Positions 3,584 to 25,922 of a DNA stretch of 27,368 nt are shown piece after piece. The position numbers were made by a program, and so were the translations under genes. The notes under the pieces were generated by a model. The model had not been told where the DNA came from, ran no database searches, and saw only the letters and a list, made by a program, of their open reading frames with translations. Numbering within the stretch: position 1 is the stretch's first letter; every line of letters begins with the position of its first letter. The DNA is from a virus. Location: the IMG/VR virus record IMGVR_UViG_3300032288_002028, positions 1-27,368 of that record; one strand, 5' to 3'.

Positions 3584-4087
3584 ATGGAAGATAAGTTCAA
3601 GAAGCTGGATAAGTTAATCTCTGACGCTATTAAGACTAACAATGCATCTATAAGCTGGACGAATGTAGAGAATGTTAGTCGCTGCAATCACCTTCGCGCT
3701 ATGAGTAGTGTCGGTGATTTCGCACACAGCCTCGTTGGAGATCATAGCGGAAAGTATGCCAGGCGCGCAAATGTAGGAGATCTATTTCGTGCAATCTTGT
3801 ATATAGCCAATACTTCCGGCGTATCATTGTTAGATATGTTCGACGGCGATGATGGTCTAGGATTGCGCCGAATGGTGTGTGAGGGTATTGATCATACAGT
3901 TCATAAGTATGATGTCCTTGAAGCTTTCAGCAATGTATCAATGTGCATGGCCACGCTTGGCGTTAATAATGACGGTCTCTGCGAATATGATATTGTTCAA
4001 GCTCTGATTAGTCTCATTGTGCTATCAGCCAAGCTATCCTTTCCGCCACTAATAGATTGCGTGTATGTCGGGTGGGATGAGCAATGA
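3584..4087 (+). CDS. Helical protein, possibly with two degenerate MazG-like repeats
   Basis: A 167-residue protein of unknown function, preceded by GAAGGATTGAGAA and separated from the previous gene by 3 bases. Two internal segments look alike: VGDLFRAILYIANTSGVSL (about residues 63-81) and IVQALISLIVLSAKLSFPPL (about 138-157). Both resemble the last long helix of MazG-like nucleotide pyrophosphohydrolases, normally GDVLxxLxxLAxxxGLSLEE. The same helix occurs in the three paralogues at 21124-22015. The Glu-rich metal-binding helix pair of active MazG is not evident, so activity is doubtful. The assignment is tentative. Confidence 0.6.
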   Translation: MEDKFKKLDKLISDAIKTNNASISWTNVENVSRCNHLRAMSSVGDFAHSLVGDHSGKYARRANVGDLFRAILYIANTSGVSLLDMFDGDDGLGLRRMVCEGIDHTVHKYDVLEAFSNVSMCMATLGVNNDGLCEYDIVQALISLIVLSAKLSFPPLIDCVYVGWDEQ

Positions 4088-19671: not shown

Positions 19672-20310
19672 TCACCACAATCCTACTGAACGACCACCTA
19701 AGAACGTCCCGCCAATATTTAGCAGATCACCGAATGATTGTCTCGCGACATTGCCCTTCGCGGTAACGCCCATAGCTTGAGCAGCAGCACCACGGCCAAA
19801 CAGATCCGATACATTCTGCCCAAGTTGCATTCCTGGTTTTCCCTGCATGGCGGCAGATGCTTGTCCGAGTTCTGTCAACCCGCCCAATCTATTGTATTGT
19901 TGTTCAAGTAGGCTCGATAAGACCTGCGGCCTGAATTGGGCAAGGGATGCTTGGAAATTACCGCCACGCAATCCGCCAGTAGCAGCCGCGTTCTGCAATA
20001 GAGCATTTTCACCTTGCTGCGTAAGGGCCTGAAACTGAGGCGAAGTGGCAATTCGTTCGATGGCGGCCTGTTCTGCCTCAGGACCCTGAAGCCCCAAGAA
20101 CGTTTGTTGCTGTCCCAATGCTTGGCCGCCAGCCGTGACATACGGCGACATAAGCTTGACCAATTCATCGAATTGGCGGCGCTGTTCTGCCACACCTTCT
20201 TGAGATGCTTGGTATTGTAATTGCCCCGCCTGAGCAGCAGCTTCGCCTGCCTGTTTAGCGCCAGTAATACCACCAACAATGTTACCAACGGCCTTGCCAA
20301 TCGCACCCAT
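19672..20310 (-). CDS. P22 gp7-like DNA transfer/ejection protein
   Basis: A 212-residue protein. A Gly/Ala-rich N-terminus (AIGKAVGNIVGGITGAKQAG) leads into an Ala/Gln coiled coil and the conserved LMSPYVTAGGQALGQQ block (about 53-68). GGLRGGNFQASLAQF and a C-terminal LLNIGGTFLGGRS segment follow. This block is recognisable in P22 gp7-type injection proteins. GGAG lies eight bases before ATG 20310, inside the end of the gp14-like gene. It precedes the gp20-like gene by 11 bases. Confidence 0.8.
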   Translation of the reverse strand: MGAIGKAVGNIVGGITGAKQAGEAAAQAGQLQYQASQEGVAEQRRQFDELVKLMSPYVTAGGQALGQQQTFLGLQGPEAEQAAIERIATSPQFQALTQQGENALLQNAAATGGLRGGNFQASLAQFRPQVLSSLLEQQYNRLGGLTELGQASAAMQGKPGMQLGQNVSDLFGRGAAAQAMGVTAKGNVARQSFGDLLNIGGTFLGGRSVGLW

Positions 20311-20311
20311 A

Positions 20312-20770
20312 TTACTTACTCCAGTCCTTCCTAGTCATTCCTAGGATGTAAACGCCTTTTAATTCACCATTAACCATGTACGCATCCCGCCTCATGCCTT
20401 CTTCCACGAATCCAAGCTTAAGGCAGTAATTCCTCGCCGATTCTAGGCCTTCAACGACATAGGCCGTGACGCGCATAATGTTCGGGTTATAGAAAGCCCA
20501 ATCGATGCAAGATCTACCTAATTCGCGGGAATGCTTAATGGCTGATCTTTTTAGAAGGGCGTGCAAGTCTAACTCGATGAAACCAGATTCGATCGCCATA
20601 AATAGACCGCAAAATTGATCATCGACCCACGCCGATAAATAACGAACATTTGGATGTACAATCGGGGAGGCTGGTCGATGGTCATGACCAACGCGATGTA
20701 TATAGGGGTCACTATATACCTCTAGCAGTTGATCGTATGTTACTTGTTCGCTGACCCAGACACGCGCCAT
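20312..20770 (-). CDS. GNAT-fold protein, P22 gp14-like (DUF2824)
   Basis: A 152-residue protein. Its C-terminal half has an acetyltransferase-like signature: ESARNYCLKLGFVEEGMRRD, then VYILGMTRKDW. The central CoA-binding loop is weak (SRELGRSC), so activity is uncertain. P22 gp14, encoded before gp7, is a member of such a GNAT-like family and is needed to assemble ejection proteins; the gene order here is the same. GAGGTAAAT precedes ATG 20770, the first gene of the left late operon; a promoter candidate lies upstream at 20814-20841. Longer in-frame extensions lie in the intergenic region and lack support. Confidence 0.75.
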   Translation of the reverse strand: MARVWVSEQVTYDQLLEVYSDPYIHRVGHDHRPASPIVHPNVRYLSAWVDDQFCGLFMAIESGFIELDLHALLKRSAIKHSRELGRSCIDWAFYNPNIMRVTAYVVEGLESARNYCLKLGFVEEGMRRDAYMVNGELKGVYILGMTRKDWSK

Positions 20771-20813
20771 ATTTACCTCGTTATGGAGCGCCGGTGACTC
20801 TAATACTCGGACT

Positions 20814-20841
20814 CTTATATATTTGCACAAAAGACATACAA
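20814..20841 (-). promoter_or_regulatory. Candidate leftward late promoter before the gp14-like gene
   Basis: On the minus strand TTGTAT (20841 to 20836) and TATAAG (20819 to 20814) are separated by 16 bases, 43 bases before ATG 20770. Between the -10 and the gene lie three GAGT tetramers (on the minus strand) within about 20 bases. Because the preceding late genes end at 23008 and the cassette between runs the other way, the leftward ejection genes need a promoter around here. The boxes are only moderately good. Confidence 0.35.
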
Positions 20842-20853
20842 ACACAATAGAGG

Positions 20854-20881
20854 TTGAGTTAAATATAAAACGTGGTAATTT
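20854..20881 (+). promoter_or_regulatory. Candidate rightward promoter for the seven-gene cassette
   Basis: TTGAGT (20854-20859) and TAATTT (20876-20881) are separated by 16 bases, about 34 bases before ATG 20915. The AT-rich surroundings suit a promoter. It faces away from the candidate late promoter at 20814-20841, so the 144-base gap (20771-20914) is a divergent control region. Box quality is modest. Confidence 0.3.
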
Positions 20882-20914
20882 GTAAGAAACAGAAACACAC
20901 AACAAGAGGATAAA

Positions 20915-21127
20915 ATGGATCCGCATATTTATTCACCTATCGCCATCGCCAGAAATGTTCTGGGCGATAGATACCGCCAAGGTCGCCGCGGTGAGATTTA
21001 CATCGATGGCCGCCAGAGCGATATCCGCGAGGCCATCATGATTGCCAACAAGATCCTCGCTAGGCAGGAACAACCACTCATCCATTATCCATCCGTTAAT
21101 CCTAAACATGACAGGAGTGTAGCGTGA
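20915..21127 (+). CDS. Unknown basic protein, first gene of the reversed cassette
   Basis: A 70-residue basic protein with RYRQGRRGEIYIDGRQSDIR in the middle and a helix (AIMIANKILARQEQP) after it. AAGAGGATAAA precedes the ATG. No family is recognised. It ends in a GTGA overlap with the first MazG-like gene, so the two are coupled. As the leading gene of an operon opposite to the late genes it could be regulatory, but no DNA-binding motif is clear. Confidence 0.6.
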   Translation: MDPHIYSPIAIARNVLGDRYRQGRRGEIYIDGRQSDIREAIMIANKILARQEQPLIHYPSVNPKHDRSVA

Positions 21128-21384
21128 GTAATCTAGCTGACACCGTGCGCGATATAGAGAAGTGGGTGTTCGATAATGGCTTGGAGACCGAAAGCCCTAA
21201 CGCCACACTGGTGGAGATTTTTGAAAGATTAAAGTTCTCTGTTCATGATTCTAACAGACAGGATACGATGATCGGCATTGGTAATGTTGGTGTTCTTCTA
21301 ATTACGCTCGCCGAACAATATGGGTTGTCATTTGAGGCATGCCTTAAGCGTTACTTTGAGGTTGTGAAGGATCAGAAGTTATGA
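21124..21384 (+). CDS. MazG-like fold protein A, active site apparently lost
   Basis: An 86-residue protein aligning well with the small phage MazG-like proteins: I-x-x-W-x-x-D-N-G-L at the start, a Glu-containing helix IFERLKFSVHD, then IGNVGVLLITLAEQYGLSFE and KDQK at the end. Active MazG proteins coordinate Mg2+ with an E-x-x-E helix and E/D residues such as the Asp of GDV. Here GDV reads GNV and the second helix Glu is missing, so NTP hydrolysis is unlikely. The GTG start overlaps the preceding stop. Paralogues B and C follow directly. Confidence 0.7.
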   Translation: MSNLADTVRDIEKWVFDNGLETESPNATLVEIFERLKFSVHDSNRQDTMIGIGNVGVLLITLAEQYGLSFEACLKRYFEVVKDQKL

Positions 21385-21749
21385 ATCATGATGAGAGGCA
21401 GGAAATCCAACGCCATAATAACGAACGATTATCAAGGATGGTTGACGGTATGGTTTATAATAAGCGAAGAATATTATCCCATCCACGCAAGCAATTTATG
21501 TCCGACATTGTTGATGATATCCATAGATCAATATTCTATAAGCGTATTCCGGAGAGGAATGGCGAGAAAAGTATTGTAAAGACAGAACCGCATGTACTGC
21601 AATACGTCAAGAACACCATGGCAGATGATATCAAGATGACCGTTGGAGATGTCGCAGTCTGTTTAATGATGATATCCGAGATCTATAAAGTACCTCTGAA
21701 TGAAATGCTTCAAATATTACATAGAGAACTTGAAGTGAGTGGATTATGA
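21381..21749 (+). CDS. MazG-like fold protein B, with extra N-terminus
   Basis: A 122-residue protein. About 50 extra basic, His-rich residues precede a C-terminal MazG-like part with ADDIKMTVGDVAVCLMMISE (about residues 80-99) and a KVPLNEMLQILHRELEV ending. Here the GDV Asp is kept, but the paired Glu helix is not clear, so activity remains doubtful. It starts in an ATGA overlap with protein A and ends in one with protein C. It is the most diverged of the three. Confidence 0.6.
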   Translation: MNHDERQEIQRHNNERLSRMVDGMVYNKRRILSHPRKQFMSDIVDDIHRSIFYKRIPERNGEKSIVKTEPHVLQYVKNTMADDIKMTVGDVAVCLMMISEIYKVPLNEMLQILHRELEVSGL

Positions 21750-22015
21750 TCAATTATCCAGCCGATGATGCCATCAAGGGAATAGAGAAAGCAATCGTTG
21801 ATGCTGGTTTCGACCAGAAAAACCCGAGAGCAACAATTGCCGTTCTGCGGGATTATTTATATGATTCTGACAAATTTATTAACGACGGAACTCAGATGTT
21901 TATTGCAATATCAAAAATGGCCGCTGGTCTGATTGTGTTGGCAAAGCAAAACAATATCTCGTTTGAAAGATGCCTTGTACATGCTTTAGTAACATTGCAC
22001 TTGGGGGAGTCATGA
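21746..22015 (+). CDS. MazG-like fold protein C, active site apparently lost
   Basis: An 89-residue protein clearly paralogous to A. DDAIKGIEKAIVDAGFDQKN aligns with the A start (Ile, Glu, Lys, Asp and Gly shared), both then have P-x-A-T, and LIVLAKQNNISFERCL aligns with LITLAEQYGLSFEACL. The GDV motif is replaced by SKMAAG and no E-x-x-E is seen, so metal binding looks lost. It overlaps both neighbours by ATGA; the next gene encodes the exported nuclease, whose ribosome site GGGGGAG is inside the end of this gene. Confidence 0.65.
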   Translation: MINYPADDAIKGIEKAIVDAGFDQKNPRATIAVLRDYLYDSDKFINDGTQMFIAISKMAAGLIVLAKQNNISFERCLVHALVTLHLGES

Positions 22016-22446
22016 ACATCAACGCCACACTTGCTGCAACATTTATGCTATTGGCTGTAGATGTTGCGCTCATCGGGAACGCCACCGCTGATTCATCTTA
22101 CGAATGGCGTGTGATCGATGGTGACACCTTCGAGATCCCGTCTCAAGTCTCACTATCTATCCTGTCGGACTTAAATGTATCTGTTCGAGTTAGAGGCGTA
22201 GATACGCCAGAGATCAAGGGAAAGTGCTTTGACGAACGGCGCAAGGCAGAGCAGGCTAAAATCTTCACCAAAGATGCGCTCTCTAATGCTAAGTCGGTTG
22301 AGATTAAGAACGCCGAATGGGATAAGTATGGCGGCCGGATTGACGCTGATGTGGTGATAGATGGCAAGAATCTTGCCAAAATGTTAATCGAACGAGATCT
22401 TGGGCGGCCTTATGATGGCGGCAGTCGTCGCTCATGGTGTAAGTAG
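22012..22446 (+). CDS. Probably exported thermonuclease (staphylococcal-nuclease family)
   Basis: A 144-residue SNase-fold nuclease. The hydrophobic start (TLAATFMLLAVDVALIG) ending NATA-DSS looks like a signal peptide, though it lacks the usual basic residues near Met. The nuclease core has VIDGDTFEI (metal Asp), VRVRGVDTPEIKG (Arg and Glu of the active site) and WDKYGGRIDADV, then a final RRSWC, as in proteobacterial thermonuclease relatives. It would cut DNA/RNA in the periplasm or outside. ATG 22012 has GGGGGAG just upstream and overlaps the MazG-like gene C. A role against incoming DNA is inferred. Confidence 0.82.
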   Translation: MNINATLAATFMLLAVDVALIGNATADSSYEWRVIDGDTFEIPSQVSLSILSDLNVSVRVRGVDTPEIKGKCFDERRKAEQAKIFTKDALSNAKSVEIKNAEWDKYGGRIDADVVIDGKNLAKMLIERDLGRPYDGGSRRSWCK

Positions 22447-22457
22447 GAGTGACCAAA

Positions 22458-22700
22458 ATGTTTGTGCAACTTTCTGATGACGATCTGCATAATCTTAAGA
22501 GGGTATTAGAAGCCTCTAACGACCTTGCTTATGCTATAAATAGACTTCTCAATTGTGTTAATGGCGATGTCTGTCATAGTTTTGAGGATTTCGCATTAGA
22601 TGGATTTGGGAGTGCCATGAATTACATGGACGAAGCCACGCATGGAGTTCAAGGGTTATTATCCAGAATGAATCATGCTCGGAAGTTGGACTTGAAATGA
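22458..22700 (+). CDS. Unknown acidic helical protein
   Basis: An 80-residue protein with LSDDDLHNLKRVLEASNDL, AINRLLNCVNGDVCHSFEDF and a last MDEATHGVQGLLSRMNHAR helix. It is soluble and no family is recognised. AGGAG lies eight bases before ATG 22458, which I prefer to GTG 22449. It overlaps the next small gene by ATGA. Its position beside the exported nuclease leaves open a function as an inhibitor that protects the cytoplasm, but nothing in the sequence proves this. Confidence 0.55.
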   Translation: MFVQLSDDDLHNLKRVLEASNDLAYAINRLLNCVNGDVCHSFEDFALDGFGSAMNYMDEATHGVQGLLSRMNHARKLDLK

Positions 22701-22867
22701 CGACAGCAGAATACGCCACCCTTCTGGGCGCGATTTACCTTACGCCATTCTTGCCAAGATGGTTTCTTCTCTCATTCGGTTGTTTTTTCGCCATTGGAGG
22801 GGTGATAGGCGCATGCCTCAATTTGGCAAATTCTGATCTACCGCGTATCTTGCAACAGCTCATGTGA
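22697..22867 (+). CDS. Small membrane protein, 56 residues, last gene of the cassette
   Basis: A short protein too small for many gene finders. After MTTAEYATLLGAIYLTPFLP it has WFLLSFGCFFAIGGVIGAC, a membrane helix, and possibly a second weak one before it, then a polar C-terminus. No family is recognised. It starts in an ATGA overlap with the preceding gene, which supports it. The gap behind it (22868-23007) holds no gene that I can see but contains palindromes at 22943-23013. Confidence 0.6.
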   Translation: MTTAEYATLLGAIYLTPFLPRWFLLSFGCFFAIGGVIGACLNLANSDLPRILQQLM

Positions 22868-22942
22868 TTTCCTCTCGCCCGCCAAATCAGGGGCATTGTG
22901 GATGATTTGCTGCAAGATGGCCTGAATTGTGAATGGCTGCCT

Positions 22943-23013
22943 ATGTCAAGAAATGATCATTTTTTTGACATATCTTCACCATTATGTCAGAAAAAGGCTA
23001 CATGACATCATGT
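22943..23013. promoter_or_regulatory. Cluster of four TGACAT/ATGTCA hexamers and palindromes
   Basis: ATGTCA occurs at 22943-22948 and 22984-22989, and its complement TGACAT at 22966-22971 and 23003-23008, giving two inverted pairs. The first pair frames AAATGATCATTT, a perfect 12-base palindrome centred on GATC and followed by a T-run. The last copy lies in ACATGACATCATGT (23000-23013), another palindrome, which overlaps the stop codon of the minus-strand gene. As it lies between convergent operons, it could be a two-way terminator, or an operator array. Confidence 0.5.
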
Positions 23014-23340
23014 AATCTCCCGCCCTGAACACCGGATAACGGTGTACGCCGAATCGCATGCGGTCGATATGTAGCCACCACTACCTATTACATGGCCGCA
23101 TAGCTCTGGGAATGTATACGTTTCACCAGATGCAATAATACGATTGAACGTGATGCAATTAGATTGATCTGCACCAAGTCCGTTAGGAACGAGATTTACG
23201 CTTATGGTTGAATCGCTGCCAGAGGTATTGGTTGCTGTGAACTTGTCAATTATCGCTTGGCAATTGCTCGCCGTATACTGTGTTGACTGGGCAATGCCAG
23301 AATATTTCGACGGTATAAGTTCTTTGACATAAACGGCCAT
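23008..23340 (-). CDS. Podophage structural beta protein (decoration or tail type)
   Basis: A 110-residue beta-rich protein. The pattern TQYTASNCQAIIDKFTATNT, then TISVNLVP, SGETYTFPELCGHVI and a final RCSGREIT is one I know from small proteins encoded beside tail genes of podophages. I cannot name a verified function. Four cysteines are spread through it. It is the last gene of the right late block; the start ATG 23340 is seven bases behind the stop of the gene before it. It could decorate the virion. Confidence 0.65.
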   Translation of the reverse strand: MAVYVKELIPSKYSGIAQSTQYTASNCQAIIDKFTATNTSGSDSTISVNLVPNGLGADQSNCITFNRIIASGETYTFPELCGHVIGSGGYISTACDSAYTVIRCSGREIT

Positions 23341-23347
23341 GGATCAC

Positions 23348-24514
23348 CTATTGCTGGACTTGTGTAACATTTAATATGACAGATGGCGAAGCAGGGGCAA
23401 AGGCCGTGGCAGCAAAAAAATCAACCGATAAGGTGATATCATTAACGGCGAAGGCTAGTGTCACATAGTCGTTTGCGGCCAGACTTATGACCCTGCTTAG
23501 AGCTAGTGTTGTATACCCACCGTTTATGTCTACAGAAATCAACCGAGATGAATTGTCTATATTTACGCCATTCTTTCTAAACCACGCCCAAAATGTCTTA
23601 GCAGAAGCGCTCGTACTGGTTAGCTGTATGGTTGCGTCAAAACGATATAGACCAGACTGAGCGACAACAATTCTTGACGTCGGAGATCCAATACTAATCC
23701 CATTGGCAATCTGTGTATTATCGAAAGTTATATCATAGGCCGTGTTTATTGCCGCTGCTGCTTGGTCGGTCGTCTTGGTGAACACGCCATAATATTCTTG
23801 TTGCTCGATAGTCGGACGGACGAAGATCTCGCCATTGGTTGCATCTACTTGCAGGACTGCGGCAATCGGTATGACATTATTCGGGGCGGTTGGCTTAACA
23901 TTGGTTAGTTTCCCCGCCTGCGTCGGATGGCAATACAAGATATCGCCGACAGACCAAGTCTCACTGACACTAACTCCGGTGGTGTCTATACCATTTACAT
24001 GCCCCCATACAGTGCAGTACCCAACTTCTCCACTGTCTGGTAAGTCGTGCGACATGACCCCAAGGATATACAGGCTTGATAGTGTTCCATCGGCTAAATA
24101 GTTCGATACTTGGAGGGTGTTATTCGTTCCAGCCCCAACGAACCCAACTGGACTTCCCTTGGTAATGGTTGCGCCGGTAAGATTCTGCACACGGGCATAG
24201 GTCTCCATGCCTATTTGCTGCGTGACACCATAATCCATACCGATACTAGCGGTCTGGTTAGGCTCATCCCAATGGAGCCTCGCCTTCTTCTCGGTATGGG
24301 GCGCATTCTTATTTAGATCGATATAATCAGTTGACACTGAGTTATTGGGCGTATTGGCTGGTGACTTGATGGCTAGTTCAAGCGGATTCGGGTCAGTGCT
24401 GGTCGACTCTAGGCCAGATGCGACGCTGAATAGCCGTTCGAACTGCTTGATTTGCTGAGGATCTTTGAGGAAGGAAGCAAGTTGAGCGCGTGTTAATTTC
24501 AATTCATTAGCCAT
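23348..24514 (-). CDS. Tail protein with C-terminal C1q/TNF-like domain, candidate tail needle or fibre
   Basis: A 388-residue protein. The N-terminal 50 residues form a helix (TRAQLASFLKDPQQIKQFER). The middle (about 75-225) has a beta domain known from podophage structural proteins: GMDYGVTQQIGMETYARVQN, then GDILYCHPTQAGKLTNVKP. The last 150 residues look like a C1q/TNF jelly roll: YGVFTKTTDQAAAAI, SGLYRFDATIQLT, FRKNGVNIDNS and SLAANDYVTLAF. It directly follows the gp10-like gene, where P22 encodes the tail needle; the Sf6 needle has a TNF-like knob. Host contact is inferred. Confidence 0.7.
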   Translation of the reverse strand: MANELKLTRAQLASFLKDPQQIKQFERLFSVASGLESTSTDPNPLELAIKSPANTPNNSVSTDYIDLNKNAPHTEKKARLHWDEPNQTASIGMDYGVTQQIGMETYARVQNLTGATITKGSPVGFVGAGTNNTLQVSNYLADGTLSSLYILGVMSHDLPDSGEVGYCTVWGHVNGIDTTGVSVSETWSVGDILYCHPTQAGKLTNVKPTAPNNVIPIAAVLQVDATNGEIFVRPTIEQQEYYGVFTKTTDQAAAAINTAYDITFDNTQIANGISIGSPTSRIVVAQSGLYRFDATIQLTSTSASAKTFWAWFRKNGVNIDNSSRLISVDINGGYTTLALSRVISLAANDYVTLAFAVNDITLSVDFFAATAFAPASPSVILNVTQVQQ

Positions 24515-24515
24515 A

Positions 24516-25922
24516 TTAGTACACCAATGGTGTTAGTTTGGCCTCAATCCTAACGAATGACATATGGGCTTGGCTGTCACCCTTGAACCTTTGAACACGC
24601 CAGTTACGCATATGACCTTGTCTGAACCAGACCAGACGCTTATTGCGATTGCCAATAGTGCCAATGCTGATTGATTTATCTTGCGACCATGTTTGGCCAT
24701 CAATCGAATAGCTTGTCGATATCTTTGGATCCTTGCCGATCTCAACCCGACCAGTCAACGCCACCAGTTCGATCTGATTGAATATCGCGCCATTGCCCTC
24801 ATTGTAGAGGATCGATGACCCAAATTCCCAACGAACGATATCGCCGAAATGATGAGATGTGTTGTCATCAAGATAGCCAAGCTTGTTGCTATTGGTGTCA
24901 CCAACAATCCACTTGTCGTAGCACCATACAAAGTTTCTTGCCCGATACTTTGAGAACCCGTCAATCGCACTGGTAAGGACAAACCATATCGGAGATTGAG
25001 TGTCAGATGATGCGGCTATGTCATAGACCAATGTTCTATCTGGCAGATGGATATACAAAAAGCGATGTGATCGATGGTTTCTGGCTTCCAGTTTTACCGT
25101 CGAAAGTTGATCCTCGGTGTACCCTTGGAGAATATAATCTATCTCCTGCGTGCCTATTTTCTTCGTATCGCCATTGGATGCAACATAGACAGATGGCGGC
25201 TCATTGCGTCCACTGCCAAGAAATGCAATCAGATCTGAGAATACGCAACAGGCGTGAGTTCCGATCACTCCCTTCTGCACCTGTGCGCCATCGATCCGTT
25301 GGAACGGAAATAGATCGCCACCAACGTTATCAAACACCTCGATAGTATGGCGATTTAAGACATACATCTCATTGCGTAGTTTGATGATAGCCTTGACAGG
25401 ATCGGGATCGATCTCAGACGAACCATACTTTAGAGGGTTAACGGATGTTGGATCATTCAATTCGGTCACAACGAGGCTGGTTCCGTCTGTGGTCATGAAG
25501 TAACCATCGACCCAAGCAAAATCCACCACGTTCCCGAGATCTGGATCCGCGACGGAGGTCAACGTCGTGCCATTCCAGTAATACAGGTTGCCAGATGACG
25601 CAACGGCCAAACGATCAAAGCTATAATCGAACGTCACATATTGGCTATCATCGCCACCAACGTCGCCAAGCTCAGTTATCACGCCATCCGATGACACACT
25701 TACTAGCTTAGTTCCCATGACTCGATAGAGCGTGCCGTTCCATTCAATCCCGCCTCGATCCTTCCCTAATCCGGTAGCATATTCGATGATGCCATCAGCA
25801 GGACGAATGAAGCCTTCGCTTATGCCAGATTGTTTAGGTACAGGGATCATATTGACAGGATAAGATGTCCGCAAATCCGGCGAATTGTCGGTATATATGC
25901 CGCTGATTAACGGAATCTGCAT
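24516..25922 (-). CDS. Packaged-DNA stabilisation tail protein, P22 gp10-like
   Basis: A 468-residue protein of the family of P22 gp10, which closes the portal channel and joins the gp4 ring to the tail. PLISGIYTDNSPDLRTSYPVN-like opening, VPKQSGISEGFIRPADGI, repeated WNGTLY/YWNGTTL beta-propeller-type segments, RNEMYVLNRHTIEVFDNVGG and a late SYSIDGQTWSQDK are diagnostic. The length equals P22 gp10 within a few residues. It follows gp4-like and two small genes and precedes the TNF-domain protein by one base. Confidence 0.88.
   Translation of the reverse strand: MQIPLISGIYTDNSPDLRTSYPVNMIPVPKQSGISEGFIRPADGIIEYATGLGKDRGGIEWNGTLYRVMGTKLVSVSSDGVITELGDVGGDDSQYVTFDYSFDRLAVASSGNLYYWNGTTLTSVADPDLGNVVDFAWVDGYFMTTDGTSLVVTELNDPTSVNPLKYGSSEIDPDPVKAIIKLRNEMYVLNRHTIEVFDNVGGDLFPFQRIDGAQVQKGVIGTHACCVFSDLIAFLGSGRNEPPSVYVASNGDTKKIGTQEIDYILQGYTEDQLSTVKLEARNHRSHRFLYIHLPDRTLVYDIAASSDTQSPIWFVLTSAIDGFSKYRARNFVWCYDKWIVGDTNSNKLGYLDDNTSHHFGDIVRWEFGSSILYNEGNGAIFNQIELVALTGRVEIGKDPKISTSYSIDGQTWSQDKSISIGTIGNRNKRLVWFRQGHMRNWRVQRFKGDSQAHMSFVRIEAKLTPLVY

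What the first reader, a model, noticed from the sequence alone, without database searches (positions are those of the whole stretch)
20915..22867. Seven-gene cassette inverted inside the late tail/ejection block
Seven overlapping plus-strand genes sit between the gp10/TNF-type tail genes (minus) and the gp14-like ejection genes (minus). In P22 these two blocks are contiguous. The cassette has its own promoter candidate, ends at a palindrome cluster and encodes non-structural proteins: three MazG-fold paralogues, an exported nuclease and small unknown or membrane proteins. This is the shape of a moron carrying a function useful during infection, such as superinfection exclusion, counter-defence or nucleotide signalling. 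The combination is not one I know.
Basis: partly seen in the sequence, partly recalled or inferred. Interest (0 to 1): 0.7.

Follow-up and report, generated by a model that had tools for sequence, protein, structure and literature searches.

The report
Inverted accessory operon among late genes
A short-tailed (P22-like) virus of bacteria carries, on the opposite strand inside its particle-building genes, a tight seven-gene extra operon with an apparently exported DNA-cutting enzyme and two or three enzyme-like proteins that have lost their active sites; none of about 150 compared relatives has it there, so it is probably an acquired extra whose job is still unknown.

Summary
Seven coupled plus-strand ORFs cover 20915-22867; 500 shuffles never give more than 821 bp of such a chain. 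The block lies between g23008 and the gp14-like gene of a P22-like late cluster. In 152 non-identical relatives the g23008-to-gp7 distance is at most 1.7 kb (2.7 kb here), no relative carries the cassette, and none shows a comparable opposite-strand insert. [quoted passage not shown]

Contents: c3 and c5 are MazG-like and c4 probably so, but the metal-binding acids that MazG needs are mostly gone, so they are likely pseudoenzymes. c6 is a staphylococcal-nuclease-family protein with intact core motifs, probably exported. c8 looks membrane-bound; c2 and c7 have no detected relatives. The promoter candidate is no better than chance; the palindrome is real but not a classical terminator. Function is inferred: most likely DNA cutting outside the cytoplasm (superinfection exclusion).

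In passing: a small covarying RNA pseudoknot, absent from Rfam in the loci tested, sits behind promoter-like sequences upstream of gp14-type genes and portal genes in many P22-like phages.

The parts
20915..21127 (+). c2, 70 aa, no detected relatives
   Evidence: ORF with upstream AAGAGGAT-AAA-ATG; no family or phage match; coding signal ambiguous between strands
21124..21384 (+). c3, 86 aa, MazG-like, predicted inactive
   Evidence: phrog_28554 MazG-like E=2e-7; aligns to phage MazG proteins with DxxD replaced by IxxN
21381..21749 (+). c4, 122 aa, probable diverged MazG-like paralogue (C-terminal half)
   Evidence: ungapped 72-residue alignment with c3, z=7.5; hhalign score 25.2 against at most 18.6 for controls; structure model too weak to use
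21746..22015 (+). c5, 89 aa, MazG-like paralogue of c3, predicted inactive
   Evidence: hhalign probability 94; pairwise z=16.7 with c3; DxxD replaced by IxxK
22012..22446 (+). c6, 144 aa, SNase-family nuclease with N-terminal signal-like segment
   Evidence: PF00565 27.8 bits (cut-off 21); phrog_452 E=6e-14; aligned to staphylococcal nuclease; homologues in L162 and L165 have clear signal peptides
22449..22700 (+). c7, 83 aa, no detected relatives
22697..22867 (+). c8, 56 aa, hydrophobic, probably membrane protein
   Evidence: sequence shows two hydrophobic stretches; no family match
22942..22972 (.). AT-rich palindrome TATGTCAA...TTGACATA at the 3' end of the cassette
22983..23008 (.). further ATGTCA/TGACAT half-sites next to the palindrome
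20814..20914 (.). AT-rich gap between gp14 and c2 that would have to hold the cassette promoter
   Evidence: position; promoter scan not above chance
20780..20813 (-). degenerate match to the leader pseudoknot found 5' of gp14-type genes in relatives (suggestive only)
   Evidence: mean alignment score 16.9 against a maximum of 14.7 over 60 random slices; a model built without this sequence does not find it
20312..20773 (-). gp14-type late gene (right flank on the late strand)
   Evidence: phrog_651 E=6e-12; DUF2824 just below cut-off
19672..20310 (-). gp7-type DNA ejection gene
   Evidence: phrog_598
23008..23340 (-). g23008, small late gene (other flank), conserved in relatives
   Evidence: phrog_20100 E=5e-4; found next to gp10/TNF in most relatives
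23348..24514 (-). TNF/C1q-type structural gene candidate
   Evidence: the gene in the same position in MW202867 is annotated cerebellin-1 domain; no PHROG match
24516..25922 (-). gp10-type head closure gene
   Evidence: phrog_578 E=8e-107

Best explanation
A phage-specific accessory operon (moron) of about 2.1 kb sits between g23008 and the gp14/gp7 ejection genes, on the early-gene strand. Shown: a seven-gene coupled chain, absence from all relatives examined, MazG-like proteins without the metal ligands, a nuclease of the SNase family with its core motifs. Inferred: it is transcribed from its own promoter, apart from late transcription, and acts during infection. Most likely mechanism: c6 is exported and cuts DNA outside the cytoplasm, so that DNA injected by a competing phage is destroyed (superinfection exclusion), helped or placed by the small membrane protein c8; the MazG-derived proteins act by binding nucleotides or partner proteins without hydrolysing them. 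I put the moron part at about 0.85 and the exclusion mechanism at about 0.3.
For: Chain far above chance; plus-frame coding signal for c3-c7. Empty site: g23008 lies about 60-130 bp before gp14 in L010, L012, L015, L016, L018, L073, L124 and others; g23008-to-gp7 distance at most 1.7 kb in 152 non-identical loci against 2.7 kb here; no comparable opposite-strand insert in 163 loci scanned, while the same test flags the window with gaps of 973 and 628 bp. No homologue of c2, c4, c5, c7 or c8 in any fetched locus. SNase family match and motifs; signal peptides in homologues. Loss of MazG ligands (ligands defined in PMC10014863 and PMC8342488).
Against: No promoter signal above chance and no expression data. 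The nuclease's own predicted signal segment has no positive charge at its start. In other phages relatives of c6 lie beside endolysin or baseplate genes, which fits a role at lysis as well as exclusion. No link to known exclusion or defence families. Codon use does not mark the block as foreign or early.
Confidence: 0.4

Rival explanations
1. Counter-defence: the three MazG-derived proteins are nucleotide-binding sponges that sequester a signalling nucleotide made by host immunity, in the manner of known phage sponge proteins.
For: MazG-like fold with catalytic acids lost in c3 and c5 and largely in c4; paralogues kept as intact coupled genes.
Against: No sequence link to known sponges or to any PADLOC family; ligand binding cannot be predicted; the nuclease is not explained.
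Confidence: 0.15
2. Lysis or scavenging aid: the exported nuclease cuts host DNA at lysis to free virions or recycle nucleotides, and the other genes are fellow passengers.
For: Relatives of c6 lie next to endolysin genes in L170 and L172 and next to a baseplate-type gene in L169.
Against: Here the gene is on the strand opposite to the late and lysis genes.
Confidence: 0.2
3. Displaced early genes: a piece of an early accessory operon, like those with MazG-like genes in other phages, moved into the late block without a new function.
For: Same strand as the early genes; MazG-like genes of other phages lie among replication or early genes; two P22-like relatives carry MazG-like genes outside the late virion block.
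Against: No early-region homologue of the other cassette genes in any relative.
Confidence: 0.25
4. Assembly artefact: foreign DNA joined into this contig.
For: Single metagenomic record; no second copy found.
Against: The insert lies exactly between two genes that are neighbours in relatives, and its codon use matches the phage.
Confidence: 0.04

Closest known systems
P22 'ant moron' (immI, sieA) between genes 16 and 9 (PMC2629481)
   Same: Independent non-structural gene group inserted in a P22-like late operon, variable between relatives
   Different: Here the site is between g23008 and gp14 and no ant, arc, mnt or sieA match was found; that paper states that no morons were then known elsewhere in the assembly gene cluster of these phages
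Phage MazG and MazZ pyrophosphohydrolases (S-PM2, PMC6850273; S-2L, PMC8342488)
   Same: Sequence-profile similarity of c3 and c5; the top fold match of a weak c3 model is S-2L MazG-like 7ody, though not significant (E=1.2)
   Different: Metal-binding acids lost; three tandem short paralogues
Staphylococcal nuclease / thermonuclease family (PF00565)
   Same: Family profile and the DGDT, R..VDTPE and DKYG..R motifs; secretion
   Different: Phage-borne in a moron; only distantly related to the Staphylococcus enzyme
Lambdoid nin-type gene strings with ATGA overlaps (described in PMC8022706)
   Same: Short genes joined by ATGA overlaps
   Different: Different genes and inserted in the late block

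Membership tests
Moron (definition in PMC2629481) | Inserted in a phage operon when compared across related phages | tested here: met
   Absent from 152 non-identical relatives with g23008 and gp7; neighbours adjacent or nearly so there
Moron (definition in PMC2629481) | Usually expressed independently (own promoter) | tested here: inconclusive
   Opposite strand, but promoter scan at chance level
Moron (definition in PMC2629481) | No function in morphogenesis or lysis | not testable with these tools
   Contents look non-structural, but a role at lysis is not excluded
P22 ant moron | Located between genes 16 and 9 | tested here: not met
   Located between g23008 and gp14
P22 ant moron | Contains ant, arc, mnt or sieA homologues | tested here: not met
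   No such match in Pfam, PHROGs or NCBIfam
MazG NTP pyrophosphohydrolases | Sequence or profile similarity to MazG | tested here: met
   c3 phrog_28554 E=2e-7, c5 hhalign 94; c4 only weakly
MazG NTP pyrophosphohydrolases | Metal ligands EExxE and (E/D)xxD | tested here: not met
   Second motif IxxN in c3, IxxK in c5; first motif partial in c3 and absent in c5; c4 keeps one Asp
MazG NTP pyrophosphohydrolases | Pyrophosphohydrolase activity | not testable with these tools
   Needs purified protein
SNase family PF00565 | Pfam score above curated cut-off | tested here: met
   27.8 bits, cut-off 21
SNase family PF00565 | Catalytic Arg, Asp and Glu of staphylococcal nuclease | tested here: met
   DGDT and R..VDTPE aligned; the second Arg follows DKYGG, one residue later than in staphylococcal nuclease, as in homologues L162 and L165
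SNase family PF00565 | Secretion signal (secreted members) | tested here: inconclusive
   Hydrophobic N-terminus with ATA-D site but no positive charge; homologues have clear signals

The most novel reading that the evidence does not exclude
The cassette is an unrecognised infection-control system in which two or three catalytically dead MazG paralogues form a nucleotide-binding heteromer and work together with an exported nuclease and a membrane protein to block competing phages or host signalling, placed at a previously unreported moron site of P22-like phages.
Probability: 0.1. Interest if true: 0.75.

Novelty: new variant of a known kind. Interest (0 to 1): 0.5.

Why it matters
P22-like phages are the model for short-tailed assembly, and a 2008 comparison (PMC2629481) found morons at only one place in their assembly gene cluster and asked whether other places tolerate insertion. 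This genome shows a second place, on the opposite strand, in an environmental relative. The gene set is unusual: MazG-like proteins without catalytic acids next to a predicted exported nuclease, small enough to express and test for exclusion or counter-defence. The RNA pseudoknot noticed beside the site could be of wider interest.

Tried and rejected
Promoter and terminator scans: at chance level. Repeats flanking the insert as a transposition footprint: none of 8 bases or more between the two edges. AlphaFold of c4: mean pLDDT 52, not used; of c3 with c5: pLDDT 62, fold search top hits include MazG-type proteins but none significant. Viral-collection scans with c2, c3, c4, c7: no relatives. 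PADLOC: only chance-level or SNase-domain matches. Early protein 3584-4087 as a further MazG-like pair: weak, not claimed. Opposite-strand 254-aa ORFs in L055, L060 and L063: not counted, since loci with gaps of similar size read two late-strand ORFs there and the opposite-strand test did not flag these loci. Leader pseudoknot in the window: an independent model does not find it, so the copy is only suggestive. Papers on MazG pseudoenzymes in phages: none found.

Full report
What was checked. The window is a 27,368-base virus record with early-type genes on the plus strand (about 2.5-12.2 kb) and late genes on the minus strand. Head genes (terminase, portal, coat) were not seen in it, so it is probably a fragment. 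The finding concerns seven plus-strand ORFs inside the late block.

Observation. The seven ORFs are present at the stated place. Five of six junctions are 4-base ATGA or GTGA overlaps; the sixth is a TAG followed two bases later by GTG. The coupled chain covers 1953 bp; the other strand has at most 237 bp, and 500 dinucleotide shuffles reach at most 821 bp and two genes. Codon statistics trained on the other window genes favour the plus frame for c3-c7; c2 scores about equally on the other strand and c8 is too short to tell. GC skew changes sign over the block. The nuclease most likely starts at 22012, after GGGGGAG, rather than at 21970.

Neighbourhood. At the high-coordinate side of the block lie g23008, a TNF/C1q-type gene candidate and the gp10-type gene; at the low-coordinate side lie gp14-, gp7- and gp20-type genes. 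Eighty relatives were fetched with gp10 (65-71% identity) and eighty with gp14. In many of them g23008 is followed after about 60-130 bp by gp14, or by one late-strand gene of about 130 codons and then gp14 or another small late gene and gp7. Over all fetched loci, 152 non-identical ones have g23008 and gp7 on one strand, with a distance of 178 to 1713 bp; in the window it is 2698 bp. A test for stretches of the late block with no late-strand ORF found five short cases in 163 loci, none with a gene chain, while the same test flags the window clearly. No fetched locus encodes relatives of c2, c4, c5, c7 or c8; matches to c3 are only the phage MazG proteins fetched on purpose, and the nuclease matches lie outside this site. 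The insertion is therefore specific to this phage at the sampling available.

Contents. c3 matches phage MazG-like families and about 330 phage records by tblastn, many annotated MazG-like or DNA-binding; several of those genes lie beside replication or nucleotide genes. c5 is its paralogue (31% identity overall; shuffle z 16.7) and c4 is probably another (z 7.5; hhalign 25.2 against at most 18.6 for other window proteins and shuffles). MazG needs two acids on one helix and two on the next (Mtb Glu119, Glu122, Glu138, Asp141, PMC10014863; S-2L MazZ Glu35, Glu38, Glu50, Asp53, PMC8342488). In c3 the second pair reads IxxN and in c5 IxxK; in c4 only one Asp remains. These proteins are thus predicted not to hydrolyse nucleotides; even an active cyanophage MazG was found not to act on ppGpp (PMC6850273). 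c6 passes the Pfam SNase cut-off and aligns to staphylococcal nuclease through the catalytic motifs. Its N-terminus is hydrophobic with an ATA-D site; two homologues have typical signal peptides. c8 is hydrophobic. c2 and c7 have no detected relatives.

Signals. The promoter scan over the region gives what shuffled sequence gives. The palindrome TATGTCAAGAAATGATCATTTTTTTGACATA at 22942-22972 is exceptional on the plus strand (0 of 200 shuffles fold as well), with two more half-sites up to 23008. It lacks the T-run after the stem of a classical terminator; an operator or a processing site is equally possible.

Meaning. The block satisfies the main part of the moron definition in PMC2629481 and fails both features of the P22 ant moron. 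That paper notes that no morons were known elsewhere in the assembly gene cluster of P22-like phages; this is such a case, though in a distant environmental relative. The function is not shown. I favour DNA cutting outside the cytoplasm as superinfection exclusion (about 0.3), with lysis aid, displaced early genes and nucleotide sponge as live rivals.

A further observation beside the site. The segment upstream of gp14-type genes in relatives holds a conserved element: GCTG-AG-N(4-7)-GAGC-NNC-CAGC-R-GCTC, an H-type pseudoknot. On 38 distinct sequences without the window, 95.7% of cells pair (shuffled 88.7, sd 0.9), five of eight pairs change on both sides in some sequences, the covariation score is 0.272 (shuffled 0.141, sd 0.015), and sliding the partners destroys it. 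A model gives 50 matches with E up to 0.05 in 76 loci, all on the late strand, almost always once per locus; the sequences it was built from match by construction. No match was found in Rfam 15 for the window segment or for 19 loci. The others lack window homologues nearby; two of the downstream genes tested are portal genes (phrog_156) and several more begin alike. It looks like a late-gene leader RNA. The window has only a degenerate resemblance at 20780-20813: its mean alignment score beats 60 of 60 random slices, but a model built without it does not find it. If real, it would place the cassette at a boundary between two late transcription units, which would explain why the insertion is tolerated; this step is inference.

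Limits. No expression data, no host, one record. Structure models were poor. Collection scans with short proteins find only close relatives.

Noticed in passing
e.g. L089:4465-4492, L122:9951-9985, L146:9933-9964, L161:9968-10002; portal-side copies L249:2256-2282, L267:2370-2396: Conserved covarying 35-nt H-type pseudoknot directly behind a sigma70-like promoter, upstream of gp14-type (or replacement) genes, and upstream of portal genes in other contigs; no Rfam match in the loci tested; probably a late-gene leader RNA of P22-like phages.
   Followed up: partly
window 20780-20813 (-): Degenerate resemblance to that pseudoknot 5' of gp14; not recovered by an independent model.
   Followed up: partly
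L005, L008, L024, just 5' of gp14: The leader pseudoknot is replaced by a hairpin of the form AAAACCGTCAGACTGGCGGTTTT that looks like an intrinsic terminator.
   Followed up: no
L183 (PV364321.1, Pseudomonas phage PfAn1) 8995-11131: The gp10-type gene and a neighbouring minor tail gene are inverted relative to the other late genes in the stretch.
   Followed up: no
window 3584-4087 (+): Early protein whose weak MazG-profile scores fall in two places, possibly a further tandem of diverged MazG-like domains; below significance.
   Followed up: partly
L170:5404-6223, L172:3119-4345, L169:1278-2575: Relatives of the SNase gene lie beside endolysin genes or a baseplate-type gene in other phages.
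   Followed up: partly
L025:5414-10001, L028:5453-10001, L036:1374-6846: Inserts of about 4.5-5.5 kb between g26208 and gp10 homologues, another variable slot in the late block.
   Followed up: no
window 22847-22918: Inverted repeat with 17-nt arms (82%) across the end of c8.
   Followed up: no
L196:5303-5650 and L197:3286-3546: Two P22-like relatives carry MazG-like genes outside the late virion block: one with catalytic motifs, a few genes upstream of terminase, and one short and diverged among small genes.
   Followed up: partly
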